From the IMG/VR virus record IMGVR_UViG_3300023223_001692, positions 1-35,300 of that record: DNA of 35,300 nt. The stretch is one strand, 5' to 3'. This DNA comes from a virus. The notes below the pieces were generated by a model that saw only the letters and a program-made list of their open reading frames with translations, made no database searches and was not told the DNA's origin. A program made the translations under genes and the position numbers. Of this stretch, positions 5,366 to 34,553 are shown piece by piece. Position 1 is the first letter of the stretch. Each line of letters opens with the position of its first letter.

Positions 5366-6812
5366 CTTTTATTATTACTTCATTATTAGCTTGTATGTCC
5401 TGTACACCAAATTGTATAAAATCATTGCTATTTTGTATGACAATGGATGCAGTTACTGTGATTGAGTTGGAGTTTTCGCTTTCATCCAGAGAAAAGTTTG
5501 TTGATGCTATTACAGTTCCATTTAATAAAAATTTTCCTATAATAGTATCAGCGCCTGCACCCGCCATTTCTAAACTTACGCTTCCTAATAATAATATTCG
5601 AGTAGGTCGTACTATATGAAATCGAATTTTTCCAGTATCTGGATGAATTTCTGCTCGGTCAAAATTAAATGTTCTAAACCATTTTTGTGTGCCAGGGGTA
5701 GTAGTATCGATGATTGGTTTCAATGACCCAGCTGAACCTGATCCAATAATTCTTATTTGATTTGCTGATAAAGGAGAAACAGCTTCAATCTTTGCATTTG
5801 CTATTATTCCACTATTTCTTAATCCTTGATTTCCAACAGACCGAACTCTAGGATCATCTATATCAAGAGGTCCATTATTAAAGTCGGCAACTAAATTAGA
5901 ACCTGCGACAAATATCTGAGTAATATCAAATGAAACATTAGTTACCTGATTACTAACAATTTGCACACCTCCATAGTCAAATGAACCTTTTATAACAACT
6001 GCATCTCCATTTGACAATCCATGATTAATCGAATTAACTTGAGTTTTTACACCGGGTTCACTTGATGAGTCTTGAAATCCTTGAACAGACACATTTGGAA
6101 TAGTAGGAAAATATTGACCTGAAAAAACGGCTGCATCATAAAAAGTATTTTTAATAGTAACTTCGCCAGAGTATCCAGCACCAATCTTGAATGCATTAGC
6201 TGCATGCGTTATATCCATATTTTCAATGACAATATTTTTGTTTTTAGTTAGTGTGCTTGTATCGAAAGATAAACCACTAGCAGCTGTTGTTCCACTTCCT
6301 GAAAGACGACAATTTTTCATTGCACCTTGACAATTAAAAAATGATATTGGATCATTAGTAATATTGAATAAATCCACAGTTGTCCAGTTAATATTAAAAT
6401 CAGTAAATGCACTACCTTCACATGCAGTAAGAGTAACTCTTTCCATCAATACTAATTTTTCACTATTGGCCGTATTAGTTGCAGTTAAGGTAGCGAATTT
6501 TTCATTACTACCGGTAAGGTCAAATTCAATGTCATGAATATATAATTTATTGACAAAAGCGCCAAAAAATAATGCGCCTGTAATAGAGGGAGCATTTATT
6601 TTAAAACTATCTTTAGCCGCTGAACTTATCTCATATTTAGTATCAACTGATAGCTCTATTCTATTTGTGCCAACATCAATATTGCTCATTATTACATGTT
6701 TTTGTATTTGATCCGGCTCAATAAGACCTCCCGATGGTTGGAGTTCATTCAGCGTATCAATCCATTGACAAGCATCTCTTGATTGATAGGTTTTGCTCAT
6801 TGATGTAGTCAT
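5331..6812 (-). CDS. Tailspike/tail-fibre-like beta-helix protein
   Basis: 493 residues. ATG 6812 is chosen over 6845 because a clear ribosome site (aggag) precedes it. The N-terminal 35 residues are short and polar, then about 35-220 repeat short beta strands with Asn-rich turns (NKLYIHDIEF, KNCRLSGSG, KNIVIENMDI) as in right-handed beta-helix spikes. Around 235-310 lies a VNSINHGLSNGDAVVIKG module, also seen in two tail proteins of this genome, and the last 150 residues form a beta-rich C-terminal domain. The likely role is host-surface binding or depolymerisation; no catalytic residues can be assigned. Confidence 0.6.
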   Translation of the reverse strand: MTTSMSKTYQSRDACQWIDTLNELQPSGGLIEPDQIQKHVIMSNIDVGTNRIELSVDTKYEISSAAKDSFKINAPSITGALFFGAFVNKLYIHDIEFDLTGSNEKFATLTATNTANSEKLVLMERVTLTACEGSAFTDFNINWTTVDLFNITNDPISFFNCQGAMKNCRLSGSGTTAASGLSFDTSTLTKNKNIVIENMDITHAANAFKIGAGYSGEVTIKNTFYDAAVFSGQYFPTIPNVSVQGFQDSSSEPGVKTQVNSINHGLSNGDAVVIKGSFDYGGVQIVSNQVTNVSFDITQIFVAGSNLVADFNNGPLDIDDPRVRSVGNQGLRNSGIIANAKIEAVSPLSANQIRIIGSGSAGSLKPIIDTTTPGTQKWFRTFNFDRAEIHPDTGKIRFHIVRPTRILLLGSVSLEMAGAGADTIIGKFLLNGTVIASTNFSLDESENSNSITVTASIVIQNSNDFIQFGVQDIQANNEVIIKVATITATGMDI

Positions 6813-32653: not shown

Positions 32654-32914
32654 TCATTTTTTATGTCCAAAGATATCAGGTCGAAGTTGTTCTTTAGTGA
32701 CCACCTTTTTTGTGATTTTCTCAAGCACAATAGCATGATAAGCAGTGGGACGTGTGTATCCCATAATCCACTTATAAATTGATGTTCGGTTTGCATGCAT
32801 TTGGCTATCTTCTCTGCACTTTTTGTAAAACTGTCTATTTTCGTGCCAATCCAGTTTTTTAACATAGCTATATAAGGCATTTTTCTTGTAAGGTTTTTTT
32901 CTCTTATTTGTCAT
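32654..32914 (-). CDS. Cro/YdaS-like helix-turn-helix regulator
   Basis: 86 residues from ATG 32914 (aaggag, 8-base spacing). The last 35 residues (TSIYKWIMGYTRPTAYHAIV, EKITKKVVTKEQLRPDIFG) are the HTH with the characteristic E-K-x-T-x-x-x-V-T-x-x-x-LRPDIF ending of YdaS/Cro-type repressors. It is the first gene of the leftward arm and starts from a strong promoter. Probably represses the facing promoter or its own. Confidence 0.8.
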   Translation of the reverse strand: MTNKRKKPYKKNALYSYVKKLDWHENRQFYKKCREDSQMHANRTSIYKWIMGYTRPTAYHAIVLEKITKKVVTKEQLRPDIFGHKK

Positions 32915-32941
32915 TATTGTTAACTCCTTGATTATATTGAC

Positions 32942-32970
32942 AGTATGCCATATCATTCACAGGATGTCAA
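32942..32970 (-). promoter_or_regulatory. Leftward promoter of the regulator gene
   Basis: TTGACA (complement of 32965-32970), a 17-base spacer and CATACT (complement of 32942-32947), 28 bases before ATG 32914. The -35 lies within ATGTCAACT (32964-32972), which is mirrored at 32996-33004. Confidence 0.75.
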
Positions 32971-33373: not shown

Positions 33374-33384
33374 TAAGGATAAAT

Positions 33385-33552
33385 GTGAAAATAGCATTGC
33401 TGAATTTATTAAAGTCTAGGGCTAGATCTAGATCTAGGTCTGGTTCTACGTCTTGGTCTAGATCTAGATCTAAGTATACGTCTAGGTCTGGTTCTACGTC
33501 TTGGTCTTGGTCTTGGGCTAGGTCTTGGTCTAAGTCTAGGTCTAGGCCTTAG
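33385..33552 (+). CDS. Ser-Arg/Ser-Trp repeat protein, copy 1 (GTG start)
   Basis: 55 residues from GTG 33385, with aagga 6 bases upstream as in copy 2. Ten-residue head VKIALLNLLK is followed by alternating Ser with Arg, Trp, Gly, Thr or Lys (SRARSRSRSGSTSW...). It is coded by hexamers tct-nnn. Less regular than copy 2, as if older. Followed by taacataggagatgaaatca, as copy 2 is. Expression is unproven; GTG replaces ATG. Confidence 0.4.
   Translation: MKIALLNLLKSRARSRSRSGSTSWSRSRSKYTSRSGSTSWSWSWARSWSKSRSRP
33410..33552 (+). repeat. Degenerate hexanucleotide repeat, copy 1
   Basis: About 24 hexamers of the type GGTCT(A/T), many altered, including two imperfect copies of a longer unit (aggtctggttctacgtcttgg at about 33436-33456 and 33484-33504, stated here only by position and pattern). 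Frame-neutral unit length. Confidence 0.85.
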
Positions 33553-33577
33553 ATTTTTTAACATAGGAGATGAAATC

Positions 33578-33589
33578 ATGGAAAAATAA
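33578..33589 (+). pseudogene. Abortive start after cassette 1
   Basis: The ribosome site aggag is followed by ATG 33578, gaa, aaa, taa: an M-E-K frame. In cassette 2 the same flank leads into a full 136-residue gene. So either the downstream gene of copy 1 has been lost or the flank was copied without it. Confidence 0.35.
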
Positions 33590-33642
33590 TTTTTATTAAC
33601 TTTTTTTAACTTTAGTAAAACATTTATCACAAGGAAATAAAT

Positions 33643-33921
33643 ATGAACGAGAATAATGCTGAACATCCGTATAATGTCGGGGATAAGCTTTTTATAAGAG
33701 CTATTACTTTTCACTACATTGGTCAAATAGATAAAATTTATAAAAAGGGATTTTTACTTGCAAATGCTAGTTGGATTGCAGATAGCGGTAGATTTTATAA
33801 TGCGCTTAAAGATGGCGAACTTGATGAGGTAGAACCATATCCTAATAAAGTTTTTATTTTATTTGATTCTATAGTAGATATTACAAAATGGATTCATGCT
33901 TTGCCAACCATGCAAAAATAA
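33643..33921 (+). CDS. Conserved small phage/mobile-element protein, 92 aa
   Basis: 92 residues with aagga before the ATG. Beta-rich; the segment FLLANASWIADSGRFYNALKD with NVGDKLFIRAITFHYIGQI matches a widespread small phage protein with the pattern IR-x-VT-x-x-x-x-G, D-x-AWIADTGRF and EVEP-x-P. Family function unknown. It lies between the two repeat cassettes. Confidence 0.75.
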   Translation: MNENNAEHPYNVGDKLFIRAITFHYIGQIDKIYKKGFLLANASWIADSGRFYNALKDGELDEVEPYPNKVFILFDSIVDITKWIHALPTMQK

Positions 33922-33931
33922 AGGATAAATC

Positions 33932-34117
33932 ATGAAAGTAGGATTGCTGAATTTATTAAAGTCTAGGTCTAGTTCTAGGCCTCGGTCTCGGTCTTGGTCT
34001 TGGTCTTGGTCTAGGTCTTGGTCTAGGTCTTGGTCTTGGTCTTGGTCTAGGTCTTGGTCTAGGTCTTGGTCTTGGTCTTGGTCTAGATCTAGGTCTAGGT
34101 CTGACTCTAGATCTTAG
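33932..34117 (+). CDS. Ser-Arg/Ser-Trp repeat protein, copy 2
   Basis: 61 residues from ATG 33932 (aagga, good spacing). Head MKVGLLNLLK, then a run of SR and SW dipeptides with the 12-residue higher unit SWSWSWSRSWSR about three times (36-bp DNA period), ending SRSDSRS. No globular domain. It resembles no phage family I know. It may be RNA- or membrane-interacting through Arg and Trp, or a by-product of a DNA repeat. The head is nearly identical to that of copy 1. Confidence 0.5.
   Translation: MKVGLLNLLKSRSSSRPRSRSWSWSWSRSWSRSWSWSWSRSWSRSWSWSWSRSRSRSDSRS
33962..34117 (+). repeat. Hexanucleotide repeat array, copy 2
   Basis: About 25 units of GGTCT(A/T) with a 36-bp higher-order period. 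Far more regular than copy 1, which suggests recent expansion by slippage or recombination. Confidence 0.92.
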
Positions 34118-34142
34118 ATTTTTAACATAGGAGATGAAATCA

Positions 34143-34553
34143 ATGAATGAGAAAAATACATTAACAAAAGTGCATAATACTTATCTTCAAGTTTTGGATT
34201 CACTAGATAATGATACTATATATTTGTCATACAAAAAAAGTAATCATCAATTAGTATCAATTGCTTATTATCAAGCATGGAATCGTGCTCTTAAGAAATT
34301 TATGGAATTATTCATAATTGATGAAAATATATATTTTGGTGCCTTATGGAAAAGATCATTACCAATTTTTAAAGATAAAGGAAAAAAACCAGGTTCTAGA
34401 AATAAAGCTCTCCAGGCTCATTTATATGTTTTGGACGAATATCCGCAACGGATAGAACCCATTAATGTTTTTATAAAATATCTGCACGATATAGACTATG
34501 AAAATTTTCCTACATCGATTTGTAATGCTTTAAATATGTTTTATGGAGTATAA
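34143..34553 (+). CDS. Hypothetical protein, 136 aa
   Basis: 136 residues from ATG 34143, 10 bases after aggag; ATG 34134 is too close to that site. Helical in the N-terminal half (LQVLDSLDNDTIYLSYKK), basic GKKPGSRNKALQAHL in the middle. It follows repeat cassette 2 and precedes the next gene by two bases. No family recognised. Confidence 0.6.
   Translation: MNEKNTLTKVHNTYLQVLDSLDNDTIYLSYKKSNHQLVSIAYYQAWNRALKKFMELFIIDENIYFGALWKRSLPIFKDKGKKPGSRNKALQAHLYVLDEYPQRIEPINVFIKYLHDIDYENFPTSICNALNMFYGV

What the first reader, a model, noticed from the sequence alone, without database searches (positions are those of the whole stretch)
33375..34145. Two copies of a cassette encoding Ser-Arg/Ser-Trp hexanucleotide-repeat proteins
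Both cassettes have the same order: aaggataaat, a start codon, a head of ten residues (VKIALLNLLK / MKVGLLNLLK), an array of about 25 hexamers GGTCT(A/T), a TAG stop, then ttttaacataggagatgaaatca. Unit length 6 keeps the frame while copy number varies, so the proteins would change in length and in Arg/Trp order. Copy 2 shows a clean 36-bp higher-order period, copy 1 is degenerate. I know of no phage system of this kind. Possible roles: RNA- or membrane-active peptide, a variable surface or anti-host factor, or a DNA-level signal.
Basis: partly seen in the sequence, partly recalled or inferred. Interest (0 to 1): 0.85.

Follow-up and report, generated by a model that had tools for sequence, protein, structure and literature searches.

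The report
Phage Sm-like protein with Ser-Arg/Trp/Gly tails
Many uncultured phages carry a previously undescribed two-gene unit, a protein with the ring-forming fold of RNA-binding Sm proteins plus one or more tiny, fast-changing proteins made almost only of serine alternating with arginine, tryptophan or glycine, and the window's two repeats are one example.

Summary
The two cassettes encode short heads followed by (Ser-[Arg/Trp])n.

Searching viral contigs from this gene's side found 670 relatives. Of 160 loci fetched, an automatic caller found (Ser-[Arg/Trp/Gly])n ORFs in 142; reading the other 20 showed arrays in most, with four cut off or without one. Arrays lie on the same strand, usually immediately downstream and often overlapping the partner's stop.

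Ser is TCT, TCG, TCA, AGC or AGT in different phages, so the conserved thing is the peptide, not the DNA motif. Head type tracks the partner subfamily (neutral or basic), yet total charge is about +9 to +10 in both. Flank-identical contigs differ by whole units, up to 44 versus 24.

Best reading: an RNA-binding Sm-like scaffold with separately encoded, basic, disordered, hypervariable tails. The anatomy is shown; the biochemistry is inferred. I found nothing like it described.

The parts
33376..33380 (+). AAGGA ribosome-binding site of cassette 1
   Evidence: sequence; same arrangement as in cassette 2
33385..33552 (+). S-x ORF 1: head VKIALLNLLK + (Ser-[Arg/Trp/Gly/Thr/Lys])n, GTG start, TAG stop, 55 aa (degenerate copy)
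33415..33546 (+). TCTNGG hexamer array of cassette 1 (22 units)
33555..33583 (+). repeated 3' piece with AGGAG, followed by a 3-codon remnant ORF (ATG GAA AAA TAA): probable trace of cassette duplication
   Evidence: D2; sequence
33643..33921 (+). Sm-like partner protein, 92 aa, A-type (FIRAITFHYIGQI...ASWIADSGRF...EVEP)
   Evidence: AF2 pLDDT 94.6; Foldseek matches Sm/LSm; 389 A-type relatives
33921..33925 (+). AAGGA ribosome-binding site of cassette 2, starting in the partner's stop codon
   Evidence: sequence
33932..34117 (+). S-x ORF 2: head MKVGLLNLLK + (Ser-[Arg/Trp])n, ATG start, TAG stop, 61 aa, 36-bp higher-order period
33962..34114 (+). TCTNGG hexamer array of cassette 2 (about 25 units)
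34119..34147 (+). repeated 3' piece with AGGAG, ribosome-binding region of the next gene (ATG 34143)
   Evidence: D2; sequence

Best explanation
This is a two-component phage unit. Component 1 is a single-copy Sm/LSm-fold protein (33643-33921). Component 2 is one or more S-x proteins: a head of about 10 residues plus 20-40 repeats of Ser-[Arg/Trp/Gly], usually placed for translational coupling to component 1. I propose that the Sm-like protein is an RNA-binding (perhaps ring-forming) scaffold, that the heads dock on it, and that the basic, Trp-spaced, low-complexity repeats act as detachable disordered tails that bind RNA and help condense it into an RNP early in infection, as the Arg-rich tails of Sm/LSm proteins and RS domains do in eukaryotes. 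The repeats are renewed by gain and loss of whole hexamers, and the first base of each X codon switches between Arg, Trp and Gly. Shown here: fold (predicted), linkage, coupling geometry, protein-level conservation, array turnover. Inferred: RNA binding, ring formation, head docking, condensation, timing.
For: Fold: both partner subfamilies are modelled with confidence (pLDDT 94.6 and 88.1); the listed PDB matches are Sm/LSm. Linkage: 142/160 partner-selected loci have S-x ORFs by automatic calling, 204/206 on the partner's strand; reading the other 20 finds arrays in most. From the array side 76/110 loci hold the partner in the fetched stretch, 125/125 arrays same strand, plus 8 more on the full record. 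No other neighbour cluster exceeds 12 of 160 loci. Coupling: start within 5 nt of the partner's stop in 132/207 cases, 73 at -4. Protein-level: Ser via TCT, TCG, TCA, AGC, AGT; X = Gly .315, Arg .293, Trp .266; an ATG-led frame spans the array in 382/418 for S-x against 37 and 14 for the other frames. Charge: heads 0 (A) versus +4 (B), p=4e-29, not corrected for kinship, yet whole proteins +10 and +9, 99% positive. Trp-Trp neighbours are depleted (z=-4.6) and Trp number per array is evener than chance (p=0.02). Turnover: flank-identical contigs with 44 vs 24, 35 vs 27, 25 vs 24 units.
Against: No RNA-binding or oligomer data exist. Sequence profiles do not place the partner in Pfam LSM (one of 58 members, E=0.02) and Foldseek E-values are modest (2e-3, 6e-4). 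Some Sm-fold proteins (Rof) bind a protein instead of RNA (PMC11018626). Head-partner covariation may only reflect joint inheritance of neighbouring genes. Codon use inside arrays (Arg 94% NGG, Gly 92% GGG, one Ser codon per array) is not explained by peptide selection alone. Five array-bearing records over 30 kb show no detectable partner.
Confidence: 0.45

Rival explanations
1. Anti-host factor: the Sm-like protein inhibits a host RNA machine (as Rof inhibits Rho), and the variable S-x peptides are decoys or adaptors that change fast because the host target or a host sensor evolves.
For: Rof shows that a small Sm-fold protein can block Rho (PMC11018626, found; abstract only read); arrays change faster than their flanks and non-synonymous X changes far outnumber synonymous ones, as under diversifying selection; module sits near early and DNA-metabolism genes.
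Against: No host target identified; listed structural matches are LSm/Sm, not Rof; composition rather than specific order seems constrained.
Confidence: 0.2
2. Nucleic-acid element: the hexamer array works as DNA or RNA (GG every six bases, e.g. two-layer G-quadruplexes or a binding array for the Sm-like protein on its own mRNA), and the open frame only keeps it translated.
For: Synonymous sites inside arrays are nearly frozen: Arg 94% NGG (31% in neighbouring genes), Gly 92% GGG (19%), synonymous Ser change in 164 of 4531 units; GG spacing is kept in TCT, TCG, TCA, AGC and AGT arrays.
Against: The motif itself changes between phages (GGTCTN to GGAGCN) while the peptide does not; L216 has AGCCNA units without GG and L204/L205 use AGA; the S-x frame has the start in 382/418 arrays; whole-protein charge is balanced with the head.
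Confidence: 0.13
3. Membrane-active peptide: Arg/Trp-rich S-x proteins act on membranes and the Sm-like protein regulates or neutralises them, as in a toxin-antitoxin pair.
For: Short, cationic, Trp-rich proteins; overlapping genes are common in toxin-antitoxin operons (general knowledge).
Against: Up to 14 S-x copies per contig beside a partner that is single-copy in 40 of 40 contigs checked; every second residue is Ser; no such partner fold known to me in toxin-antitoxin pairs.
Confidence: 0.08
4. Ordinary microsatellite junk or assembly artefact that happens to be open.
For: Slippage clearly acts on the arrays; short-read assembly of repeats is error-prone.
Against: Hundreds of unrelated contigs, a fixed partner, shared strand, ATG-led heads, stop right after the array, and GenBank phage MW202573 with the same pair.
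Confidence: 0.02

Closest known systems
Sm/LSm/Hfq superfamily (SmD3, LSm1-8, SmAP; also LSM14/Edc3 LSm domains)
   Same: Predicted fold: bent beta-barrel; listed PDB matches for both subfamilies. LSM14-type domains bind short peptides, a model for head docking.
   Different: No Pfam LSM membership by sequence; the Sm2 Arg-Gly motif is only partly present; phage-borne; Arg-rich tail encoded in separate, often multi-copy genes.
RS domains of eukaryotic SR splicing factors and RG tails of SmB/D1/D3, LSm4
   Same: Low-complexity, basic, Ser/Arg or Gly/Arg dipeptide repeats acting beside Sm-fold proteins (general knowledge).
   Different: Trp makes up about 27% of X positions, no RRM, no known kinase, separate proteins of about 64 aa, hypervariable.
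Rof (YaeO), Sm-like inhibitor of Rho (PMC11018626)
   Same: Small Sm-fold protein that modulates an RNA machine.
   Different: No repeat partner known to me; not among listed structural matches; no Pfam ROF match.
Simple-sequence contingency loci (phase variation)
   Same: Slippage-prone short repeats in coding DNA.
   Different: Unit of six keeps the frame, so length and composition change rather than on/off switching.
Diversity-generating retroelements
   Same: Variation confined to chosen codon positions.
   Different: No reverse transcriptase in 40 of 40 contigs tested; variation at the first base of NGG codons, with whole-unit gain and loss.

Membership tests
Sm/LSm superfamily (partner protein) | Sm fold | tested here: met
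   AF2 + Foldseek, both subfamilies; predicted, not solved
Sm/LSm superfamily (partner protein) | Sequence match to LSM or related Pfam profiles | tested here: not met
   1 of 58 members, E=0.02, a weak match only; no significant PDB sequence match
Sm/LSm superfamily (partner protein) | Sm1/Sm2 motifs | tested here: inconclusive
   G-x-L...L-x-D-A resembles Sm1; A-type GRGAIVD resembles Sm2, B-type has Q-T instead (by eye)
Sm/LSm superfamily (partner protein) | Hexa/heptameric ring and RNA binding | not testable with these tools
   single-chain prediction only
SR proteins (RS domain) | Arg-Ser dipeptide repeats | tested here: met
   Ser alternates with Arg/Trp/Gly; Arg about 29% of X
SR proteins (RS domain) | RRM domain in the same protein | tested here: not met
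   proteins are head + repeat only, median 64 aa; no Pfam match for the window's two
Diversity-generating retroelement | Reverse transcriptase gene | tested here: not met
   PF00078: 0 of 40 contigs, controls ring
Phase-variable contingency locus | Repeat number shifts frame or promoter spacing | tested here: not met
   length differences between flank-similar pairs are multiples of 3, all but one multiples of 6
Toxin-antitoxin pair | Toxicity of one product neutralised by the other | not testable with these tools
   no expression data; multi-copy S-x argues against

The most novel reading that the evidence does not exclude
Phages have a dedicated RNP system in which a single Sm-like scaffold is dressed with separately encoded, self-diversifying tails. 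Hexamer slippage changes tail length, and single-base changes in NGG codons swap Arg, Trp and Gly while synonymous sites stay frozen, so diversity at X is actively maintained by selection, for instance to tune or hide a phage condensate from host defences.
Probability: 0.3. Interest if true: 0.95.

Novelty: categorically new. Interest (0 to 1): 0.86.

Why it matters
A family with at least 670 members in IMG/VR, absent from Pfam and PHROGs and seen in only two (environmental) records of the phage collection, would link the Sm fold to simple low-complexity tails in bacterial viruses, an arrangement otherwise known to me from eukaryotic RNPs. The 60-residue proteins with a nearly four-letter alphabet are a natural, fast-evolving library for asking how composition, rather than order, sets the behaviour of disordered RNA-binding proteins. 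The partner also gives a simple genomic marker for finding the host and testing the system.

Tried and rejected
Exact head DNA as a probe: no hit in viral contigs. BLASTN of the whole region against phages and plasmids: only low-complexity or chance matches. A GGTCT-specific nucleic-acid signal: rejected once TCG/TCA/AGC/AGT arrays with the same partner were found. Gly-Leu frame of the TCT arrays as the real product: rejected, an ATG-led frame spans the array in the S-x frame in 382 of 418 cases, and the other frame becomes Gly-Arg, Gly-Ala or Gly-Val in other phages. Diversity-generating retroelement: no reverse transcriptase in 40 contigs. Patescibacteria as host: only 1 of 380 genomes has the partner, on a 12-kb contig. 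The search for related loci with the mixed alignment failed for lack of conserved stretches, so the two subfamilies were searched apart. A minority of the first array hits are SWSWSW runs lying opposite long Asp-Gln or Arg-Pro ORFs, unrelated to this class. My count of ATGA/TAATG start overlaps is not informative, because ATGA also arises from the second codon; the distances are used instead. No paper held in the library contains strings such as SRSWSRS.

Full report
WHAT IS IN THE WINDOW. The window is a 35.3-kb IMG/VR virus record with contractile-tail, head and terminase genes. Both cassettes are as described: AAGGA, start codon, ten-residue head, about 22 and 25 TCTNGG hexamers, TAG, and a shared 3' piece with AGGAG. 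After copy 2 that piece precedes the next gene (ATG 34143); after copy 1 it leads only to a 3-codon remnant, which suggests that a cassette was duplicated. Between the cassettes lies a 92-aa gene, 33643-33921; cassette 2's ribosome site begins inside its stop codon.

A WIDESPREAD CLASS. GGTCTW x5 hits at least 119 stretches of IMG/VR. A stricter mixed pattern hits 88 stretches in viral contigs but only 3 in 257 Gb of bacterial and archaeal genomes; two of these are short contigs in Patescibacteria MAGs, and both MAGs also hold the partner. In 145 distinct arrays the unit is TCTNGG with N = A .37, T .31, G .27, C .05 and the other positions 92-98% fixed. Most have an in-frame start about 7-12 codons before the array and a stop within a few codons after it. 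Heads are alike within a contig (8 copies in L007, 14 in L324) and differ between contigs.

THE PARTNER. The neighbour seen again and again is the homologue of window 33643-33921. It has no Pfam or PHROGs family. It falls into an A type (WIADSGRF, to which the window belongs) and a B type (IVYETG), with 389 and 281 relatives in IMG/VR. It is single-copy in 40 of 40 contigs checked. AlphaFold2 models have mean pLDDT 94.6 (A) and 88.1 (B); the listed Foldseek matches in the PDB are Sm or LSm chains or complexes holding them. By tblastn with one member of each subfamily the 50,697-record phage collection holds it only in two Manatee Spring records; an A-type member finds nothing in PLSDB.

LINKAGE. 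Of 160 loci fetched by partner alone, 142 have at least one (Ser-[Arg/Trp/Gly])n ORF by an automatic caller, 204 of 206 on the partner's strand. Reading the other 20 shows short, edge-cut or divergent arrays in most; L221 and L236 lack one and L297 and L316 end too soon to tell. From the array side, 76 of 110 loci hold the partner in the fetched stretch and 125 of 125 arrays share its strand; 8 more have it elsewhere on the record, while 5 records over 30 kb lack a detectable one. Apart from the partner, no neighbour cluster occurs in more than 12 of the 160 loci, and those are diverse, many of them DNA-metabolism genes to judge by their sequences. In 132 of 207 cases the S-x start is within 5 nt of the partner's stop, most often overlapping by 4.

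IT IS THE PEPTIDE THAT IS CONSERVED. In partner loci the dominant Ser codon is TCT (107 arrays), TCG (53), AGC (24), TCA (16), AGT (4) or TCC (2); X is Gly .315, Arg .293, Trp .266. The next frame would read Gly-Leu, Gly-Arg, Gly-Ala or Gly-Val depending on the phage. An ATG-led frame spans the array in 382 of 418 cases for S-x, 37 and 14 for the other two. A-type heads are neutral or hydrophobic (median charge 0), B-type heads basic (+4), yet whole proteins come to +10 and +9. Trp-Trp neighbours are under-represented (z = -4.6) and Trp number per array is slightly more even than chance (p = 0.02).

TURNOVER AND AN UNEXPLAINED PATTERN. Contigs with identical 250-bp flanks differ in the array by whole hexamers (44 vs 24, 35 vs 27, 25 vs 24, 24 vs 26 units) or by single X changes; L106 and L017 keep 28 units with a different X order. 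Within arrays the base that changes the amino acid is nearly free (median 1.53 bits), while synonymous sites are almost frozen: Arg 94% NGG against 31% in neighbouring genes, Gly 92% GGG against 19%, synonymous Ser change in 164 of 4531 units. Fast renewal by slippage plus selection for a mixture of Arg, Trp and Gly could give this; an extra nucleic-acid constraint is not excluded, although L216 and L204/L205 break the GG rule.

MECHANISM (INFERRED). I favour an RNA-binding Sm-like scaffold whose disordered basic tails are made as separate proteins and held by their heads, forming an RNP or condensate early in infection. The coupling geometry, constant total charge, spaced Trp and freedom of order all fit stickers-and-spacers tails. 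The closest analogues are Arg-rich tails of Sm/LSm proteins, RS domains, and LSM14/Edc3-type LSm domains that bind short peptides; these are likenesses, not memberships. Head-partner covariation may be no more than joint inheritance. Rof, a Sm-like Rho inhibitor (PMC11018626), shows that such a fold can instead target a host protein. No host could be assigned. No paper describing the system was found.

Noticed in passing
window 32654-32956 (-): YdaS-type Cro-like repressor (Pfam PF15943 just over cut-off; PHROG 35), divergent from the module's strand: the unit probably sits in an early/lysogeny control region.
   Followed up: partly
L324 4.3-7.6 kb: Fourteen S-x ORFs in a row beside a B-type partner, heads MITKRTKWRR and variants: a natural series for studying array divergence.
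   Followed up: partly
L216 4379-4552: Array of AGCCNA units encoding Ser-[Arg/Leu] right after the partner: a variant in which the free base is the second codon position.
   Followed up: no
L190 105-540 and L238 3762-3855: Other low-complexity repeats in partner loci (12-mers GGGAAAATCTTA; Gly-Tyr-Gly-Asp type) where the S-x ORF is degenerate.
   Followed up: no
L330 (MW202825) 5395-5649: GenBank record of an environmental phage leaves the Sm-like gene unannotated.
   Followed up: yes
L084 (contig of 301,683 bases): S-x arrays and a divergent partner also occur on a jumbo-size viral contig.
   Followed up: no
L047, L048, L088, L103, L109: A different repeat: SRTWPWSRS-like runs lying opposite very long (up to 2,600 aa) Arg-Pro frames; not part of this class.
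   Followed up: no
fold search of the partner model: Viral structure library matches include phage proteins labelled DUF6948 and 'Sm-like domain', hinting at a wider, poorly described set of phage Sm-like proteins.
   Followed up: no
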